A stretch of DNA of 64,000 nucleotides from Geodermatophilus marinus (GCF_003428645.1 NZ_QVQH01000008.1:62001-126000); one strand, 5' to 3'. Shown: positions 1,402-10,260, counted from the stretch's first letter. The notes: generated from the sequence alone by a model not told the origin. Numbers and translations: made by a program.

Positions 1402-2072
1402 GCGCGCTGGCCTCGAGCTGGACCGACGGCGCGAGCATCGGCTACCCGGTCCTCTTCGGCGGCGTGCTGCTCGGCTCCATCGCGCCGGTGGTGCCGACCG
1501 GGGCGATCGTCGGCGCCGGGGCGGCGTTCGCGATGACCGCGCACGGGCTGAACCTGCCGCTGGTGGTGCTCGTCGCCACGCTGGCGGCCTGGACCGGGGA
1601 CGTCGTCACCTTCACCATCTGCCGGTCCGGGGGCCCCGCCGCGGTGCGCTGGGTGGCCCGCGGCCAGCACGCCGACCGCATCGCCGAGGTCCGCGAGCAG
1701 TTCCGGCAGCACGGCTGGCAGATCATCGTCGTCGGCCGGCTGCTGCCCGCCGGGCGCATCCCGGTGCTCCTGGCGGCCGGCGCGCTGGCCTACCCGTGGC
1801 GCCGGCTGCTGCCCGCCTCGTTCACCGCCGCCGCGCTGTGGGCGCTGGCCTACTCCCTGCTCGGCGTGATCAGCGGCGGCATCTTCGACTCCCCGCTGAC
1901 CGCCGTCCTGCTGGCCACGGTCCTGGTCCTGGTCGTCGGCGCGCTGCTCAACCTGCTCGGCAACCGCCGGCGCCGGGCCCGGGAGCCGGGCGAGCCCCCC
2001 ACCGCGGCCGGCCCCGGTGCCCGCCGGCCCGACCCCACCCGCCCCGACGCCACCCCCTGCGGTCCGGCGTGA
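1398..2072 (+). CDS. DedA-family membrane protein
   Basis: A 224-residue integral membrane protein with hydrophobic segments near residues 13-35, 50-70 and 140-190. It has the DedA/SNARE-associated signature: a glycine-rich re-entrant region (PVVPTGAIVGAGAAFA) and a conserved arginine-proline-glycine-like segment (VVGRLLPAGRIPVLLAAGAL). DedA proteins act as envelope transporters or flippases for undecaprenyl phosphate or phospholipids. The C-terminal tail is Arg/Pro rich and probably cytoplasmic. Its start overlaps the upstream hydrolase stop by 4 bases and its own stop overlaps the next start (GTGA), implying coupled translation and a shared envelope-lipid role. Confidence 0.8.
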   Translation: MSALASSWTDGASIGYPVLFGGVLLGSIAPVVPTGAIVGAGAAFAMTAHGLNLPLVVLVATLAAWTGDVVTFTICRSGGPAAVRWVARGQHADRIAEVREQFRQHGWQIIVVGRLLPAGRIPVLLAAGALAYPWRRLLPASFTAAALWALAYSLLGVISGGIFDSPLTAVLLATVLVLVVGALLNLLGNRRRRAREPGEPPTAAGPGARRPDPTRPDATPCGPA

Positions 2073-4237
2073 GCGCGGCCCCCCGGGTCGTCGGCCGCGT
2101 CCTGCAGGCCGGGCGCACGCCGGCCCGGCTGGTCCTCACCTGGGCGGTCACCACCGCGGCGCTGGTCCTGCTCGACGACCGGCTGCGCACCTTCACCATG
2201 GACTCCTGGTGGCAGCCCCCGGTCATCGCGCTGCTGCTCGGGCTGCTCACCGCGGTGGCCTGGCCGCTGGTCATGCGGGTCGCCCTGCCCCTGGCCTTCC
2301 TCACCCTCGGCCTGGGCAGCTTCCTGCTGCTCGGCGCGGCCGTGCTCGGGCTCTCCTTCCTCGTGCCCGGCGTGGTCATCACCGGCCTGCCCACCGCGGT
2401 GGTCGTCGGGGTGGTCATGGCCGGGGTCTCCGGGGTGGTCAGCAGCGTGCTCGCCCTCGACGAGGACGAGCTGTTCTTCCGCCGCGCGCGGCGACGGGCC
2501 CGGCGGGCGCAGCCGGACGGCGACCGCCCGCCCGGCGTGCTGTTCCTGCAGATCGACGCGCTCTCCTACGAGACGGCCCGGCGCGCGGTCCGCGACGGCT
2601 CCATGCCGGTCCTGTCCGCCTGGCTGCGCTCGGGCAGCCACGCGATGACCTCCTGGCACACCGACTGGAGCTCGCAGACCGGCGCGGCGGTCAGCGGCAT
2701 CCTGCACGGGTCGAACGAGGACGTCCCGGGCTTCCGCTTCTACGACAAGGACCGCGACCGCATCGTGCGGGTCTCCTCCCCCACCGACGCCGCGGAGATC
2801 GAGCGCCGGCTCTCCGACGGCCGCGGGCTGCTCGCCGGCGGCGGGGCCAGCCGCGGCAACCTGTTCACCGGCGACGCCGCGCACGTCAGCCTCACCATGA
2901 GCTCGCTGGCCCACGTGGTCCCCGCCCGCTCCCGCCGGGCCCGCCGCCGGGAGCGGGTCGGCACCGGCTACTACGCCTACTTCGCCAGCCCGGTGAACGC
3001 CCTGCGCACCCTCGCGGTCTCCCTGGTCGACGTCGGCCGGGAACTGCTCGCCGCGGCCCGGGAGCGGCGCGACGACGTCCGGCCGCGCACCTCCCGCGGC
3101 GGCCTGTACCCGCTGGCCCGCCCGGGGACGACGGTGATCAGCCGGGACGTCGTCGTCTTCGCCCTGCTCGAGGACATGCTGGCCGGCCGCCCGGTGGCCT
3201 ACGCGGACTTCCTCGGCTACGACGAGGCGGCCCACCACGCCGGGCTCGAGCGGGCCGACAGCCTGGCCGTGCTGCGCACCATCGACCAGCAGATCGGCCG
3301 GCTGCAGCGGGCCGCGCAGCTCGCCCCCCGCGAGTACCACCTGGTCTGCCTGTCCGACCACGGCCAGACCCAGGGCGAGTCCTTCGCCACCCGCTTCGGC
3401 GAGACGGTCGAGGCGCTCGTCGGCCGGCTGTGCGGCGGCTCGGAAGCCGGCACCGGGCACCTCACCGGGCCCCGCGACAGCCGCCGGCTGACCGAGGGCT
3501 GGCAGGTCGGGGCCGCCCTGGCCGAGGGCGCCGGCCCGATCGCCCGGCGGCTGCGGGAGCGGGCCGAGCGGGGCGCCGGCCGGCCGCACGACCACGAGCT
3601 GCCGGCCGACCGCGCCGGGCAGGTGCCGCGGGTCGCCCCGGGGGTCGTCGTCGCCGTCTCCGGGCACACCGCGATGGTCTCCTTCCCCGACATCCCGGGC
3701 CGGGTGCCGCTGGAGGAGATCGAGCAGCACTGGCCGGCGCTGCTACCCGGGCTGGTCGACCACGACGGCGTCGGGTTCCTGCTGGTGCACTCCACCGAGC
3801 AGGGCCCGGTCGTGCTCGGCCGGGACGGCGTGCACCGGCTGGCCACCGGCGAGGTGCTCGGCGAGGACCCGCTCACCCCCTACGGCCCGCACGCCGCCCG
3901 CCTGGTGGCCCGCGCCTCGACGTTCCGGCACTGCGCCGACGTCGTGGTCAACAGCCGGTACGACCCGCACACCGACGAGGCGTCGGCCTTCGAGCCGCAC
4001 GTCGGCTCGCACGGCGGGCTCGGCGGCCCGCAGCAGCTCGGCTTCCTGCTGCACCCCCGCTCGTTCCGGCCGCCCGGCGAGATCGTCGGGGCCGAGCACC
4101 TGCACCGCGTGCTGCGCGGCTGGCTGACCGACCTCGGCCACCCCGAGCCGACCGGGGAGGGGGCCGCGGTGGGTCCGGACAGCGCCACCGCGCGGGCGCG
4201 GCGCTCCCCCGCCCCCGTGGCCGACGTCCCGGCCTGA
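2069..4237 (+). CDS. Phage-holin-family membrane domain fused to an alkaline-phosphatase-superfamily phosphodiesterase
   Basis: A 722-residue protein. Residues about 15-130 form four membrane segments of the 'phage holin family' (superfamily IV) type found in actinobacterial envelope proteins. Residues about 155-700 belong to the type I phosphodiesterase/nucleotide pyrophosphatase branch of the alkaline phosphatase superfamily: FLQIDALSYE (metal Asp), a likely nucleophile in WHTDWSSQTGA, DFLGYDEAAHH and CLSDHGQTQGE (metal Asp/His), and a late GSHGGLGGPQ segment. The GTG start overlaps the DedA-like stop by 4 bases. A polytopic head with a hydrolase tail suggests action on an envelope-linked phosphodiester. 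The substrate is not predictable. Confidence 0.8.
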   Translation: MSAAPRVVGRVLQAGRTPARLVLTWAVTTAALVLLDDRLRTFTMDSWWQPPVIALLLGLLTAVAWPLVMRVALPLAFLTLGLGSFLLLGAAVLGLSFLVPGVVITGLPTAVVVGVVMAGVSGVVSSVLALDEDELFFRRARRRARRAQPDGDRPPGVLFLQIDALSYETARRAVRDGSMPVLSAWLRSGSHAMTSWHTDWSSQTGAAVSGILHGSNEDVPGFRFYDKDRDRIVRVSSPTDAAEIERRLSDGRGLLAGGGASRGNLFTGDAAHVSLTMSSLAHVVPARSRRARRRERVGTGYYAYFASPVNALRTLAVSLVDVGRELLAAARERRDDVRPRTSRGGLYPLARPGTTVISRDVVVFALLEDMLAGRPVAYADFLGYDEAAHHAGLERADSLAVLRTIDQQIGRLQRAAQLAPREYHLVCLSDHGQTQGESFATRFGETVEALVGRLCGGSEAGTGHLTGPRDSRRLTEGWQVGAALAEGAGPIARRLRERAERGAGRPHDHELPADRAGQVPRVAPGVVVAVSGHTAMVSFPDIPGRVPLEEIEQHWPALLPGLVDHDGVGFLLVHSTEQGPVVLGRDGVHRLATGEVLGEDPLTPYGPHAARLVARASTFRHCADVVVNSRYDPHTDEASAFEPHVGSHGGLGGPQQLGFLLHPRSFRPPGEIVGAEHLHRVLRGWLTDLGHPEPTGEGAAVGPDSATARARRSPAPVADVPA

Positions 4238-4270: not shown

Positions 4271-7200
4271 TCAGCCGGCCGACGGCGAGGGCGACGCCGC
4301 CAGCGCCGCCGACACCGCCCGCGCCAGCCCCGGGGCGTGCTCGGCGGCCAGGAGGTCGTGGTGTGCCCCGGGCACGTCGGCGACCGCGAGGTCGGGCGCG
4401 ACCCGCCGCCACGCGGCGAGCTGGTTCATGATCACCGGGATCCGCCGGCGCGCCCGGAAGTAGCTCACCCGCCCGCCGTAGGGGCCCCACGCGTGCGCGT
4501 TGAACAGCTCCTCGCTGCGCTGCAGCGCCGCCTCCTCGGGGGCCGGCGGGGGCGCCGGCGCCAGGCGCAGCAGCGGGGCCAGCGGGCCGGCGCGCAGGAA
4601 GTCCACCGGGCCGTCCTCGGCCATGCCCGGCACGAAGCGGGCCAGCAGCGCCGCCAGGTGGTACAGCCGCTGCCGGTTCCGGGACAGCCGGCCGGTCGGC
4701 GGCAGGACGTCGAGCAGGCCGAGGAAGGGCACCTCCCGGCCCCGGGCGGTCAGCAGCCGGGCCATCTCGTAGGCCACCAGCCCGCCGAAGGAGTACCCGG
4801 CCAGCCGCACCGGCCCGGCCGGCCACACCGTCGAGACCGTCTCCACGTGCCGGCGGGCCAGCTCGGCGACCCCGCCGCCCTCACCGGGGGGCACGGGCAG
4901 CCCGTACACCGGGGCGTCGGTGTCCAGGGCCTCGACCAGGGCCCGGTAGGCGTCGACGTCCCCGAAGGCCCCGTGCACCAGGACCAGCGGCGGCTCGCCG
5001 GCCGCCCCCTCCCGGAGCGGCTCCACCGTCGCCCCCTGCGGGTCGGCCTCGGCCAGCGCCGTGGTCAGGCCGCGGACGGTCGGCTCGGCGGCGAACACCT
5101 CCAGGCCCACCGGGCGGCCGAGCTCGCTGCGCAGCCGGCGCAGCACGGTCATCGAGCTGCGGGAGGTCCCGCCGGCGTCGAAGAAGTCGGCGTCGTCGGG
5201 CACGGGGGCGCCGAGGACCTCGGTGAAGACGCGGGCCACCGCGTCGTGCACGCCGCCCTGCGGGCCGTCCGCGGCCGGCGAGGGCGCCGCAGCAGCCGCA
5301 GCAGCCGCCCCGGCCGCGGCCGCCGCGGCCGCCGCGATGCCCCGCAGCGACCCCGGGTTGCGCAGCGCGGCGGTGTTGCGCACCGGCTCGCCGTCGAGCA
5401 CCGCGCGGGCGGCCGCCTCCGACCGCTTGCCGTTGTGCGTCAGCGGCAGCTCGTCGACGGCCAGCAGCAGGTCCGGCACGTGCGCCGGCGACCCCTCCCG
5501 CCGCAGCGCCGCCCGGAGCGCGACGGCCAGCCCGTCGTCCAGCTCCACCCCGGGCCGCAGCACCACGAGCAGCGCCAGCCGGGTGCTGCCCTCCGCCGCC
5601 GGGTCGCGGGTCTCGACCGCCATGGCGTCGGCCACCCCGGGGACCGCCCGCGCGATCGTGTAGATCTCCGAGGGCCCGATCCGGACGCCGGCGACGTTGA
5701 GCACGCCGTCCGAGCGGCCGTGCACCCGCGCCGAGCCGTCGGCGTCGACGTCGACGCGGTCGCCGTGCGTCCACACCCCCGGGTGCCGGGCGAAGTAGGC
5801 GGCCCGGAAGCGCTCGCCGTCCGGGTCGTCCAGGAAGCCGGTCGGCCGGGAGGGGAACGGGTTGCGGCAGACCAGCTCGCCGACCTGCCCGAGCACCGGG
5901 CGGCCGGCGTCGTCGAGGGCGGCGACGTCCAGGCCGAGGCTGAGCGCCTGCGACCGGCCGGGCCGCACCGGCAGCTCCGGGGAGCCGAGGACGAAGCAGC
6001 CGACGATGTCGGTGCCGCCGGAGATCGACTGCAGCGGCACGGCCCCGACGGCGTCGGCGGCCCAGCGGAACTGCCACTCGTGCAGCACGGCGCCGGTCGA
6101 GAGCACCGCGCGCAGCCGGGAGAGGTCCACCTCGTCGCGCGGCCGGTACCCCTCGTCCTGGCACAGCTGCAGGTACGCCGGGCTGGTGCCCAGCACCGTG
6201 ACGCCGTGCTCGGCGGCCAGCCGCCACAGCGTGTCCGGCCCGGTCAGCGGCACGTCGGCGAGCACCACGTGCGCCCCGACGGCGAGCGCCGAGAGCTGCC
6301 AGTTCCACATCATCCAGGCGGTGGTGGTGTGGAAGTGCAGCGTGTCGCCGGGGCCCAGGTCGCCGTGCAGCCGGTGCTCCTTGACGTGCTCCAGCAGCGA
6401 GCCGCCGGTGCCGTGCACCATCGCCTTCGGCGGGCCGGTCGTGCCCGAGGACGCCATCACCCACAGCGGCGCGTCGAACGGCTGCCGGGGCCAGGCGGGG
6501 CCCGGGTCGCCGGCCGGGACGGCGGCCACCCGGTCGGCGAGGCGGTCGACGGCCACCCCCTCCAGGGCGGGCAGCGGCCCGTCGTCGAGCAGCAGCACCC
6601 GCTCGGCGGTGGGCAGGCCGGCGAGCACCGCGGCGAGCACGTCGTCGGCCGGCGCGTCGGGGCGGGCCATGCCGGTCCGGTCCACCAGCAGGGTCGCCGC
6701 CCGCACCGGCCCGAACCGGCCGAGCAGCGTGCTCGGGCCCATGTCCGGGGTGGCGGTCGACAGCGCGGCGCCCAGCCCGGCGACGGCGAGCGCCGCGACG
6801 GCGACCGCGGCGGTGTTCGGCGCGACGGCCAGCACCGCGGCCCCCGGGCCGACGCCTGAGTCGGCCAGGGCGCGGGAGGTCCGGCGGACGGCGGCCCGCA
6901 GCTCCCCGCGGGTGTACCGCTCCACCGACCCGTCGGCGTGCACGGAGGTCAGGGCGGGGGCGTCGTCCCCGGCGCCGTCCACCGCCCGCAGCGCGTTCTC
7001 GGCGTAGTTGAGCCGCACGCCGGGGAAGAACCGCGCCGTCCGCACGTCCCCCTCGGTCAGGACCGGGTCGGCCGAGCCCTCCCAGACCAGGCCGGACCAG
7101 TCGAGGAACGTGCGCCAGAAGTCGCCGGGGGCGGCCACCGACCAGGCGTGCAGCGCGGGAGGGGTGGGCAGCGGGCGGCCGGCGACGGCCTCGGCGCGCG

Positions 7201-7276
7201 CCCGGAAGCCGGCGACCTGCGGGGCCGCGGTCCGGGGCCCGGCGGGCGCGGGCCCCACCGGGGGCGGGGTCTTCAC
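4271..7276 (-). CDS. Acetoacetyl-CoA-synthetase-type adenylation - carrier protein - thioesterase (A-T-TE) enzyme
   Basis: A 1001-residue single-module assembly enzyme. Residues 1-640 resemble acetoacetyl-CoA synthetase: ACS-type N-terminus (HAWSVAAPGDFWRTFLDWSGL), P-loop ASSGTTGPPKAMVHG near 275, SGGTDI, THGDRVDVDADG near 503, and catalytic Lys in LTHNGKRSE near 614. An Ala-rich linker (about 644-665) leads to a carrier domain (about 670-745) with the phosphopantetheine serine in DAGGTSRSSM near 703. A type I thioesterase (about 757-1001) has GYSFGG near 828 and GAHHDLL near 970. There is no condensation or ketosynthase domain. It should load a carboxylic acid, possibly a beta-keto acid, and release or dimerise it. 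The GTG start has AGGAGG 6 bases upstream and overlaps the PPTase stop. Confidence 0.85.
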   Translation of the reverse strand: MKTPPPVGPAPAGPRTAAPQVAGFRARAEAVAGRPLPTPPALHAWSVAAPGDFWRTFLDWSGLVWEGSADPVLTEGDVRTARFFPGVRLNYAENALRAVDGAGDDAPALTSVHADGSVERYTRGELRAAVRRTSRALADSGVGPGAAVLAVAPNTAAVAVAALAVAGLGAALSTATPDMGPSTLLGRFGPVRAATLLVDRTGMARPDAPADDVLAAVLAGLPTAERVLLLDDGPLPALEGVAVDRLADRVAAVPAGDPGPAWPRQPFDAPLWVMASSGTTGPPKAMVHGTGGSLLEHVKEHRLHGDLGPGDTLHFHTTTAWMMWNWQLSALAVGAHVVLADVPLTGPDTLWRLAAEHGVTVLGTSPAYLQLCQDEGYRPRDEVDLSRLRAVLSTGAVLHEWQFRWAADAVGAVPLQSISGGTDIVGCFVLGSPELPVRPGRSQALSLGLDVAALDDAGRPVLGQVGELVCRNPFPSRPTGFLDDPDGERFRAAYFARHPGVWTHGDRVDVDADGSARVHGRSDGVLNVAGVRIGPSEIYTIARAVPGVADAMAVETRDPAAEGSTRLALLVVLRPGVELDDGLAVALRAALRREGSPAHVPDLLLAVDELPLTHNGKRSEAAARAVLDGEPVRNTAALRNPGSLRGIAAAAAAAAGAAAAAAAAPSPAADGPQGGVHDAVARVFTEVLGAPVPDDADFFDAGGTSRSSMTVLRRLRSELGRPVGLEVFAAEPTVRGLTTALAEADPQGATVEPLREGAAGEPPLVLVHGAFGDVDAYRALVEALDTDAPVYGLPVPPGEGGGVAELARRHVETVSTVWPAGPVRLAGYSFGGLVAYEMARLLTARGREVPFLGLLDVLPPTGRLSRNRQRLYHLAALLARFVPGMAEDGPVDFLRAGPLAPLLRLAPAPPPAPEEAALQRSEELFNAHAWGPYGGRVSYFRARRRIPVIMNQLAAWRRVAPDLAVADVPGAHHDLLAAEHAPGLARAVSAALAASPSPSAG

Positions 7277-7977
7277 CGTGGACCTCCTGGGGGGAGCAGG
7301 ACGACACCGGGGGCGGGCACGGGGACGTCGGCCGCCAGGGCGGCGAGCGACCCGGCCGGGACGGGCAGCGCGGTCACCCACTCCGGCCCGACCCGTCCCG
7401 AGTCGGCCACCGGGGTCACCACGTCGGCGGGGGGACGGCGGATCCCGGTCCCCCGCGCCTTGAGCACGGCCTCCTTCTGCACCCAGCAGCGGGTGACCGC
7501 GGGCAGCCGGGAGGCGGCGGGGAGCTCGGCGATCCGGGCCTGCTCGGCGGGCGCCAGCCAGCCCTCGGCGGGCGCGGCGGCGGCCTCGGCGTCCCGGTGC
7601 GGCTGCACGTCGACGCCGATCCGCGCGCCTGCCGCGACCGCCACCAGGGCGAGGTCCCCGCCGGCCGAGCAGGACAGGCCGAGGTCCGCCCCGTCGACCA
7701 GCGGCCGGCCGCGGTCGCCGCGCAGGGGCACCGCGGCCGGCGGGACGCCGAGCACCCCGCCGAGCACCCGGCGCAGGCCGGCGCGGACCAGGAGCCGGCG
7801 GCGCCGCACGGCCGGGACGCCGCGCTCGGCGCGCTCGCGCTCGGCGGCGGTGAGGACGGCGGCGGCCGCGTCGAGGTCCCACCCCGGGTCGGCGAGGTCG
7901 AGGAGGTGGACGACGACCACGGCGGGGCCCCGGGCAGGGCGCCGCCGCGTCAGGTGTCGCGCCGCTCGTCCCGCCAT
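7273..7977 (-). CDS. Sfp-type 4'-phosphopantetheinyl transferase
   Basis: A 234-residue protein that would attach phosphopantetheine from CoA to carrier-protein serines. The Mg/CoA motif GVDVQPH is at 121-127 and WVQKEAVLKARG (K168, E169, K173) at 165-176, both intact. The usual SHS stretch before the first motif reads LSCSAGGDLA here, with Cys in place of His. The ATG start (MAGRAARHL) follows a short G-rich stretch; longer N-terminal extensions in the same frame look non-coding. Its stop overlaps the start of the A-T-TE gene (GTGA), so the enzyme and the carrier it should activate are translationally coupled. Confidence 0.88.
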   Translation of the reverse strand: MAGRAARHLTRRRPARGPAVVVVHLLDLADPGWDLDAAAAVLTAAERERAERGVPAVRRRRLLVRAGLRRVLGGVLGVPPAAVPLRGDRGRPLVDGADLGLSCSAGGDLALVAVAAGARIGVDVQPHRDAEAAAAPAEGWLAPAEQARIAELPAASRLPAVTRCWVQKEAVLKARGTGIRRPPADVVTPVADSGRVGPEWVTALPVPAGSLAALAADVPVPAPGVVLLPPGGPR

Positions 7978-8158: not shown

Positions 8159-9133
8159 ATGCGACCCGACGCCGGCGCGTGGTTCCGGACCCGCACGACC
8201 TCCGTCCCCACCCTCGACGCGGTCGACGCCGACCTCCTGCTGCGGGCCAGGCGCCGCGGCCGGCAGCGGGTCAGCGTCGTCCTCCCCGCCCGCGACGAGG
8301 AGGCCACCGTGGGGCGGCTGGTCGCCGACCTGCGCCGGCACTGGGTCGAGGAGGTCCCGCTGGTCGACGAGCTGCTCGTCGTCGACTCCGACTCGACCGA
8401 CGGCACGGCCGCGGCGGCCCGGGCCGCCGGGGCCGAGGTGGTGGCCGCCGGCGACGTGCTGCCGGCCCACGGCCACCGGCCCGGCAAGGGCGAGGCGCTG
8501 TGGAAGTCGCTGGCCGCCACGACGGGGGACCTGGTGGTCTTCCTCGACGCCGACCTGCTCGGCGACGTCCGGCACTACGTCCCCGGGCTGCTCGGCCCCC
8601 TGCTCACCGACCCGGGCGTCGACTACGTCAAGGGCTGCTACACCCGGCCGCTGGAGGTCGGCGGCCGGGTGCTCCCCGCCGGCGGCGGGCGGGTCACCGA
8701 GCTCACCGCGCGCCCGCTGCTCAACGCCCTGTGGCCCGAGCTGGCCGGCGTCGTCCAGCCGCTGGGCGGCGAGTACGCCGGCCGGCGGTCGGCGCTGGAG
8801 CAGGTGCCGTTCGTCTCCGGCTACGGCGTGGAAGTCGGGCTGCTGGTCGACCTGCTCGACCTGGTCGGCCTGCACGCGCTGGCGCAGGTGGACCTCGGCG
8901 TCCGGCGGCACACCTCCCAGGACGAGGTGGCCCTCGGCCGGATGGCCGGCCAGGTGGTGTCGGCGGTCCTCGCCCGCGCCGGCGGGCTGCGCACCGACCC
9001 CGGCGGCCTGCTCACCCGGTTCACCCACGACGGGACGGCGTTCGTGCCGGGCAGCACCGCGGTCGCCGTGGACGAGCGCCCGCCGATGGCCACCGTGCCC
9101 GGGTACCGGGCGCGCACCGACGAGGTCGGCTGA
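8159..9133 (+). CDS. Glucosyl-3-phosphoglycerate synthase-like glycosyltransferase (first of tandem pair)
   Basis: 324 residues, the length of mycobacterial GpgS. It is a retaining GT-A enzyme (GT81 type) expected to transfer glucose from UDP- or GDP-glucose to 3-phosphoglycerate, the first step of glucosylglycerate or methylglucose-lipopolysaccharide synthesis. Visible motifs: VSVVLPARDEEATVG, VDSDSTDGT, HRPGKGEALWKSL, the metal motif FLDADL, and VQPLGGEYAGRR. The ATG at 8159 is chosen over an upstream start because it has GGAGAG 9 bases before it and begins at the MRPDAGAWF conserved N-terminus. A second homologue follows; the pair probably arose by duplication, and the two may differ in acceptor. 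Confidence 0.85.
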   Translation: MRPDAGAWFRTRTTSVPTLDAVDADLLLRARRRGRQRVSVVLPARDEEATVGRLVADLRRHWVEEVPLVDELLVVDSDSTDGTAAAARAAGAEVVAAGDVLPAHGHRPGKGEALWKSLAATTGDLVVFLDADLLGDVRHYVPGLLGPLLTDPGVDYVKGCYTRPLEVGGRVLPAGGGRVTELTARPLLNALWPELAGVVQPLGGEYAGRRSALEQVPFVSGYGVEVGLLVDLLDLVGLHALAQVDLGVRRHTSQDEVALGRMAGQVVSAVLARAGGLRTDPGGLLTRFTHDGTAFVPGSTAVAVDERPPMATVPGYRARTDEVG

Positions 9134-9294: not shown

Positions 9295-10260
9295 GTGCGC
9301 CCCGACGTCCGGCACTGGTTCGGCACCCGCACCTACACCGCGGGCACCTGGCGGGCAGCGCAGCTGCTCGAGCGCAAGGCCGACGGCGGCACCACGGTGA
9401 GCGTGGTGCTGCCCGCCCTCGACGAGGAGCGCACCGTCGGCGACATCGTCGCCGCCCTCCGGCGCGCGCTGGTCGAGGACTGCCCCCTGGTCGACGAGGT
9501 GGTCGTCGTCGACAGCGGCTCCACCGACCGGACCGCGCAGGTCGCGGCGACCGCGGGGGCGACGGTGGTGACCGCCGCCGACGTGCTGCCCGCGCACGGC
9601 GGCCGGCCCGGCAAGGGCGAGGCGCTGTGGAAGTCGCTGCACGCCACCACCGGCGACCTCGTCGTCTTCGTCGACGCCGACCTCATCGGCTTCGACCCGC
9701 AGTTCGTCGTCGGCCTGCTGGGCCCGCTGCTCACCGACCCGGCGATCGGCTACGTCAAGGCCCTCTACGACCGCCCGCTCACCACCGTCGACGGCATCGT
9801 GCCCTCCGGCGGCGGGCGGGTCACCGAGCTGCTCGCGCGGCCGCTGATCAACGCCTTCTGGCCCGAGCTGGCCGGCTTCGTGCAGCCGCTGTCCGGGGAG
9901 TACGCCGGGCGGCGGGACCTCCTCGAGCGGGTGCCGTTCGTCTCCGGGTACGGCGTGGAGCTCGGCCTGCTGGTGGACCTCGCCGCCCTCGCCGGGCTCG
10001 ACGCCCTGGCCCAGGTCGACCTCGGCACCCGCCGGCACGGCCACCAGCCCGACGCGGCGCTGGGGCGGATGGCCGGGCAGGTCCTGCAGACCGCGCTCGC
10101 CCGCCGGCCCGGCGGCGGGCGGCCGGCCACCGAGCTGCTGCAGTTCCTGCGCACCGCCGACGGGCTGGAGGGGGTGACCTGGGACGTCGGGGTCGCCGAG
10201 CGCCCGCCGATGCGGTCGGTGCGGCGCGCGGCCGCCCGCGACGGCACCCCCCGGCCGTGA
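9295..10260 (+). CDS. Glucosyl-3-phosphoglycerate synthase-like glycosyltransferase (second of tandem pair)
   Basis: 321 residues, clearly homologous to the preceding gene along its whole length (for example RPGKGEALWKSL, FVDADL, GGGRVTEL, GEYAGRR and RVPFVSGYGVE are shared). It keeps the GT-A nucleotide-sugar and metal-binding motifs, so both copies look catalytically competent. The GTG at 9295 has GGGAGG 4 bases upstream and gives VRPDVRHWF, aligning with the N-terminus of its neighbour. Its stop overlaps the start of the GT4 gene (GTGA), tying it into a glycosyltransferase operon. Which copy is the true GpgS cannot be decided from sequence alone. Confidence 0.85.
   Translation: MRPDVRHWFGTRTYTAGTWRAAQLLERKADGGTTVSVVLPALDEERTVGDIVAALRRALVEDCPLVDEVVVVDSGSTDRTAQVAATAGATVVTAADVLPAHGGRPGKGEALWKSLHATTGDLVVFVDADLIGFDPQFVVGLLGPLLTDPAIGYVKALYDRPLTTVDGIVPSGGGRVTELLARPLINAFWPELAGFVQPLSGEYAGRRDLLERVPFVSGYGVELGLLVDLAALAGLDALAQVDLGTRRHGHQPDAALGRMAGQVLQTALARRPGGGRPATELLQFLRTADGLEGVTWDVGVAERPPMRSVRRAAARDGTPRP

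What the first reader, a model, noticed from the sequence alone, without database searches (positions are those of the whole stretch)
4271..7977. Stand-alone A-T-TE enzyme with acetoacetyl-CoA-synthetase-type adenylation domain, coupled to its own phosphopantetheinyl transferase
The adenylation half resembles AACS, not a classic amino-acid A domain, yet is fused to a carrier domain (GGTS) and a thioesterase. No condensation or ketosynthase domain is present. The PPTase stop overlaps its start. Known A-T-TE enzymes (atromentin- and ralfuranone-type synthetases) join two keto acids, so this could be an uncharacterised small-molecule pathway using a beta-keto or short carboxylic acid.
Basis: partly seen in the sequence, partly recalled or inferred. 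Interest (0 to 1): 0.7.

Follow-up and report, generated by a model that had tools for sequence, protein, structure and literature searches.

The report
Acetoacetate-type A-T-TE synthetase with own PPTase
Next to the enzyme that switches it on sits a one-protein assembly line built from an acetoacetate-activating enzyme; databases call such proteins ordinary acetoacetate-CoA ligases, but it appears to have lost CoA binding and to load the acid onto itself, so it probably makes an unknown small molecule in many soil bacteria.

Summary
Confirmed. Window 7276-4271 (-) encodes one 1001-aa protein: acetoacetyl-CoA-synthetase (AACS)-type adenylation domain, carrier domain (Ser705) and thioesterase (Ser829/Asp856/His972). 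A PPTase (7977-7273) overlaps its start by 4 nt.

It belongs to a well-supported clade (SH-aLRT 100) of full-length A-T-TE proteins, sister to stand-alone AACS, in Actinomycetota, Burkholderiales, Acetobacterales and Verrucomicrobia; the two annotated public records checked call it 'acetoacetate--CoA ligase'. The catalytic lysine and an AACS-like acyl pocket are kept. The CoA-contacting positions of AACS are lost, and a held-out set agreed. It should therefore load its own carrier, not free CoA.

The PPTase is the only widely recurring neighbour (within two genes in 56 of 88 loci). Six Geodermatophilus genomes lacking the pair have mfd and a surA-like gene directly adjacent, so the genetic unit is just these two genes. 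No NRPS-type partner is near, with few exceptions.

In two Blastococcus species the thioesterase is replaced by a serine-acetyltransferase-like domain under purifying selection, favouring acyl transfer to an acceptor over dimerisation. Substrate (acetoacetate or similar) and product are inferred. New variant of a known kind; I found no description of it in the open-access papers searched.

The parts
7273..7977 (-). Sfp/HetI-type 4'-phosphopantetheinyl transferase, 234 aa (ATG at 7977; a codon model prefers a later GTG at 7920)
   Evidence: Pfam ACPS 2.8e-12; NF042922 HetI hit 62 bits, below cut-off; translation; start alternative
4271..7276 (-). A-T-TE protein, 1001 aa, GTG start overlapping the PPTase stop by 4 nt
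   Evidence: AlphaFold2 model mean pLDDT 85
5858..7156 (-). AACS-type N-terminal and large adenylation subdomain (ACAS_N 41-95, AMP-binding 105-473); pocket motifs AWMMWNWQLSAL (320-331), STGAVL (393-398), SISGGTDIVGCFVLG (417-431)
5426..5656 (-). AMP-binding C-terminal subdomain 541-617 with catalytic Lys617 (nt 5426-5428); the AACS-invariant Arg598 position is Ala
5057..5242 (-). Carrier (T/PCP) domain 679-740, phosphopantetheine Ser705 (nt 5162-5164)
   Evidence: Pfam PF00550 2.5e-10; Ser705 in 90/90
4292..4990 (-). Type I thioesterase domain (~763-995), Ser829 (4790-4792), Asp856 (4709-4711), His972 (4361-4363)
   Evidence: Pfam PF00975 1.6e-22; triad invariant in the 30-sequence alignment; T-TE model pLDDT 89, nearest PDB EntF, Pks13 and NocB thioesterases

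Best explanation
A two-gene biosynthetic unit. The PPTase converts the carrier domain to its holo form. The AACS-derived A domain adenylates a short beta-oxo acid (acetoacetate or a close analogue) and transfers the acyl group to the phosphopantetheine on its own Ser705 instead of to free CoA. The thioesterase takes it on Ser829 and, most likely, passes it to a hydroxyl or amine of a diffusible acceptor, giving an acetoacetyl(-like) ester or amide. Shown by sequence: domains, catalytic residues, loss of CoA-contacting positions, two-gene unit. Inferred: substrate, self-loading, transfer as the release mode; the acceptor is unknown.
For: Domains and catalytic residues. AACS ancestry and one clade of 61 A-T-TE rows against 38 AACS, SH-aLRT 100. 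AACS motif around SeAcs Arg191 (D-G-Y-x-x-x-G-K/R; D200 45/47, G201 47/47, Y202 46/47) absent in A-T-TE; Arg592 (= SeAcs Arg584) R/K in 47/47 AACS but R in only 39/90 A-T-TE; Arg598 47/47 against 0/90; Arg532 (= SeAcs Arg526) 47/47 against 49/90; these Acs arginines contact CoA or hold the thioester-forming conformation (PMC10455477). Held-out check: 5/5 further stand-alone AACS carry DGYRYxGK and SxRHVP, 6/6 A-T-TE from the same group of genomes do not. Pocket matches the A-T-TE consensus at 27-28/36 positions in the best stand-alone AACS and 34/36 on average within the family. Dedicated PPTase: 56/88 loci within two genes, 35 overlapping or touching; the own genome has 4 such PPTases, 3 beside its 3 A-T-TEs. 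Two-gene unit by empty sites in 6/6 genomes. TE replaced by CysE/EpsC-like hexapeptide acyltransferase in L075/L079 with dN/dS 0.12 there and 0.17 in the A domain. Precedent: Pks13 TE releases a beta-ketoacyl chain onto trehalose (PMC9210659) and is among the nearest TE folds. In L227/L228 the gene sits within a carnitine-catabolism locus with BKACE and carnitine dehydrogenase, which yield acetoacetate, where Leisingera has a stand-alone AACS.
Against: No biochemistry. TE folds do not reveal hydrolysis, transfer or cyclisation. The domain swap is known in two closely related species and may have changed the product. The carnitine locus is one syntenic case among about 26. No acceptor-supplying gene is conserved.
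Confidence: 0.42

Rival explanations
1. Self-condensing synthetase working like atromentin/ralfuranone synthetases: two acyl units, one on the TE serine and one on the carrier, are joined by the TE into a dimeric or lactonised product such as a pyrone.
For: Same A-T-TE order without a condensation domain; no other conserved biosynthetic gene and a two-gene unit, as expected if the product is complete on release; intact TE triad in most relatives.
Against: A domain is of the AACS family, not the amino-acid/aryl-keto-acid type. Some family members have a hexapeptide acyltransferase or a TE without the nucleophile in place of an active TE, which would not catalyse this condensation.
Confidence: 0.28
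2. The protein is a carrier-bound acyl donor used in trans: acetoacetyl-S-T is handed to a separate enzyme (for example a glycan or lipid acyltransferase) and the TE is mainly editing or accessory.
For: TE nucleophile and His lost in L117, L078, L112 while Lys617 and Ser705 stay; glycan genes beside several loci, e.g. Wzx/UDP-galactopyranose mutase in L119, two AT3 O-acyltransferases in L106, GpgS-like transferases in the window.
Against: No conserved partner gene. Glycosyltransferases are not more frequent beside these genes (5/132) than in random regions of the same genomes (4/96). Most members keep the full TE triad.
Confidence: 0.15
3. It is still an acetoacetate-CoA ligase, as annotated, and the T-TE part is an accessory or proofreading addition.
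For: Passes the TIGR01217 cut-off; annotated so in public records; most of the 21 Burkholderiales genomes searched carry it and no stand-alone AACS.
Against: CoA-contacting positions conserved in all AACS examined are lost or drifting in A-T-TE, confirmed on held-out sequences; the own genome keeps two stand-alone AACS with these positions; coupled PPTase and invariant carrier serine.
Confidence: 0.08

Closest known systems
Acetoacetyl-CoA synthetase (S. lividans AACS, PDB 4wd1; TIGR01217)
   Same: Whole adenylation part including the N-terminal ACAS_N region, catalytic lysine, SGGTD pocket motif and the C-terminal extension (N634, L638, P641 invariant); 36% identity in the structural alignment.
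   Different: Fused to carrier and thioesterase; CoA-contacting positions lost; forms its own clade.
Atromentin / polyporic acid / ralfuranone synthetases (AtrA, GreA, CorA, RalA, EchA)
   Same: Stand-alone A-T-TE without condensation domain (PMC10316625, PMC9047271).
   Different: Those activate aromatic alpha-keto acids with NRPS-type A domains; here the A domain is AACS-type and product chemistry is unknown.
EntF / NocB / Pks13 carrier-thioesterase regions
   Same: T-TE fold and Ser-Asp-His triad; best Foldseek matches; Pks13 TE releases a beta-ketoacyl chain onto trehalose (PMC9210659).
   Different: No condensation or ketosynthase domain upstream; single small acyl unit expected.

Membership tests
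Acetoacetate-CoA ligase (AACS) | Scores above the curated AACS model cut-off | tested here: met
   TIGR01217 546.2 over 520.9, though NF002937 613.6 is under its 639
Acetoacetate-CoA ligase (AACS) | Conserved CoA-contacting positions | tested here: not met
   DGYxxxG(K/R) motif and Arg598 absent; the window protein itself keeps Arg592 and Arg532, which drift in the clade
Acetoacetate-CoA ligase (AACS) | Catalytic lysine and AACS-type acyl pocket | tested here: met
   Lys617 in 90/90 A-T-TE and 47/47 AACS; SGGTD conserved
Acetoacetate-CoA ligase (AACS) | Forms acetoacetyl-CoA | not testable with these tools
   needs an enzyme assay
Atromentin/ralfuranone-type synthetases | Domain order A-T-TE without condensation domain | tested here: met
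   relatives
Atromentin/ralfuranone-type synthetases | NRPS-type A domain for aromatic alpha-keto acids | tested here: not met
   amino-acid adenylation model 97.7 against cut-off 317.4; AACS models 546-614 bits
Atromentin/ralfuranone-type synthetases | TE joins two identical keto acids | not testable with these tools
   no sequence marker of this activity was available for test
Sfp-type PPTase (neighbour) | ACPS-superfamily domain | tested here: met
   PF01648 47.1 bits over 25

The most novel reading that the evidence does not exclude
A widespread, apparently undescribed family of minimal two-gene pathways (PPTase + AACS-derived A-T-TE) in which an acetoacetyl-CoA synthetase has become a carrier-loading synthetase that transfers an acetoacetyl-type group to an acceptor, with exchangeable release domains (thioesterase or hexapeptide acyltransferase), hidden in databases as acetoacetate-CoA ligase.
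Probability: 0.42. Interest if true: 0.7.

Novelty: new variant of a known kind. Interest (0 to 1): 0.55.

Why it matters
It shows a change of function from primary metabolism (CoA ligase) to a self-loading synthetase with a sequence signature that separates the two. It would correct the annotation of these genes and offers perhaps the smallest possible pathway to test (two genes), likely leading to a new small molecule or modification. Geodermatophilaceae and Burkholderiales genomes that have it carry one to three copies.

Tried and rejected
Glycan hypothesis: glycan genes recur beside the gene, but group-1 glycosyltransferases are not enriched over random regions of the same genomes (5/132 against 4/96); kept only as a lead. 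L191 looked like an A-only variant but is an A-T-TE with one frameshift after the A domain. A search for a described equivalent in nine open-access paper searches found none (one search left unused; subscription papers not covered). PADLOC: no hit. Class-wide prevalence search failed, and earlier family-wide tries failed before a smaller one worked. A control of stand-alone AACS neighbourhoods was dropped because only 5 stand-alone AACS were present in the 21 Burkholderiales genomes.

Full report
Observation. On the minus strand a PPTase (7977-7273) and a 1001-aa protein (7276-4271) overlap by the tetranucleotide GTGA. The large protein has, in order, ACAS_N, AMP-binding, AMP-binding_C, PP-binding and Thioesterase domains, all above Pfam's gathering scores. 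NCBIfam places the first 650 residues in the acetoacetate-CoA ligase family (546 bits, cut-off 520.9) and far from the amino-acid adenylation model (98 bits, cut-off 317). The nearest solved protein is S. lividans AACS, 4wd1. An AlphaFold2 model from a 30-sequence family alignment has mean pLDDT 85; its best PDB match is again 4wd1 and the next is the EntF terminal module.

Relatives. The window's genome has three full-length copies (window; contig 34, 66% identical; contig 12, 60%) plus two stand-alone AACS at about 40%. Full-length copies occur in 16 of 26 congeneric genomes (my count) and in 32 of 99 genomes of the family, so the gene is accessory. A scan of 84,980 species genomes gave 80 kept loci in Geodermatophilaceae, Pseudonocardia, Solirubrobacterales/Thermoleophilia, Burkholderiales, Acetobacterales, a delta-proteobacterium and Verrucomicrobia, nearly all about 920-1130 aa long in one frame. 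On a tree of 61 A-T-TE and 38 AACS adenylation domains each group is one side of a branch with SH-aLRT 100 (quick search, unrooted). The two annotated public plasmid copies examined, from Cupriavidus and Caballeronia, are named acetoacetate--CoA ligase.

From CoA ligase to self-loading enzyme. The catalytic lysine (Lys617), the carrier serine (Ser705) and the SGGTD pocket are invariant in 90 A-T-TE sequences. In Acs, Arg191 and Arg584 contact CoA phosphates and Arg526 stabilises the thioester-forming conformation (PMC10455477). The stretch around Arg191 is DGY..(G)G(K/R) in AACS (D 45/47, G 47/47, Y 46/47) and is degenerate in A-T-TE. The Arg584 equivalent (592) is R/K in 47/47 AACS but R in 39/90 A-T-TE; the Arg526 equivalent (532) is 47/47 against 49/90; and Arg598, invariant in AACS, is never Arg in A-T-TE. 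The window protein itself still has Arg at 592 and 532, so for it the case rests on the 200-207 motif and position 598. As a held-out check, five further stand-alone AACS from Burkholderiales all carry DGYRYxGK and SxRHVP, and six A-T-TE proteins from the same group of genomes do not. The alignment to Acs numbering is mine, by homology. The acyl pocket is close to that of AACS (27-28 of 36 motif positions shared with the nearest stand-alone AACS), which makes acetoacetate or a near analogue the best substrate guess. It also has family-specific, nearly invariant changes (Trp326, Gln327, Gly426, Cys427, Leu430), so another short acid is possible.

Two-gene unit. Across 88 loci the PPTase is the only widely recurring neighbour: 56 have one within two genes, 35 of them overlapping or touching the A-T-TE. 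The host genome has four such PPTases and three lie beside the three A-T-TEs. In the commonest Geodermatophilus site the pair lies between mfd and a surA-like lipoprotein gene; in six of six congeneric genomes without the A-T-TE those two genes are directly adjacent. Apart from four loci with a second, ordinary-A-domain A-T-TE and one with an NRPS, no adenylation, carrier or thioesterase homologue was found in the flanks. That comparison used A, T and TE queries, so a lone condensation or ketosynthase gene could have been missed.

Release step. The thioesterase has Ser829, Asp856 and His972, invariant in the 30-sequence alignment, and its fold is nearest to EntF, Pks13 and NocB thioesterases. 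In Blastococcus tunisiensis and B. xanthinilyticus the thioesterase is replaced in frame by a hexapeptide-repeat domain nearest to serine acetyltransferases and EpsC, with dN/dS 0.12 in that domain and 0.17 in the A domain, so these are not decayed genes. In three further loci the TE lacks the nucleophile and the histidine while A and T stay intact. This suggests that the loaded acyl-carrier is the essential intermediate and that release can be an acyl transfer to an acceptor. Pks13, whose TE releases a beta-ketoacyl product onto trehalose (PMC9210659), is a precedent. I rate transfer above self-condensation, but only moderately.

Genomic hints to substrate. In two Caballeronia (L227, L228; one syntenic case) the gene sits between a GlxA-like regulator and a betaine-binding protein followed by BKACE and carnitine dehydrogenase, the enzymes that make acetoacetate from carnitine (established pathway knowledge); Leisingera has a stand-alone AACS in the same company. 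Glycan genes are frequent neighbours elsewhere, but no more than in random regions.

Verdict. Real, conserved and mislabelled in databases; a new variant of stand-alone A-T-TE synthetases. Substrate, acceptor and product need experiments.

Noticed in passing
L075:7950-10724 (+) and L079:7947-10727 (+): Blastococcus homologues in which the thioesterase is replaced by a serine-acetyltransferase-like hexapeptide domain, under purifying selection.
   Followed up: partly
L117, L078, L112: A-T-TE homologues whose thioesterase has lost the nucleophilic serine and the histidine while A and T domains stay intact.
   Followed up: partly
L037:4906-7521 (-), also L058, L062, L129: A second A-T-TE of about 872 aa with an ordinary NRPS-like A domain close to the AACS-type one, beside a GT2 and two GH16 genes in L037.
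   Followed up: partly
L227 and L228: AACS-type A-T-TE inside a carnitine/choline catabolism locus with BKACE and carnitine dehydrogenase.
   Followed up: partly
window 8159-9133 and 9295-10260 (+): Two adjacent GT2 genes; the first scores as glucosyl-3-phosphoglycerate synthase (404 bits, cut-off 262) and the second is its relative; followed by a GT4 gene.
   Followed up: no
window 2069-4237 (+): Membrane domain of the Phage_holin_4_2 family fused to a type I phosphodiesterase domain in one ORF.
   Followed up: no
L191:3461-5677 (-): A-T-TE with a frameshift after the A domain in a complete genome; sequencing error or recent loss.
   Followed up: partly
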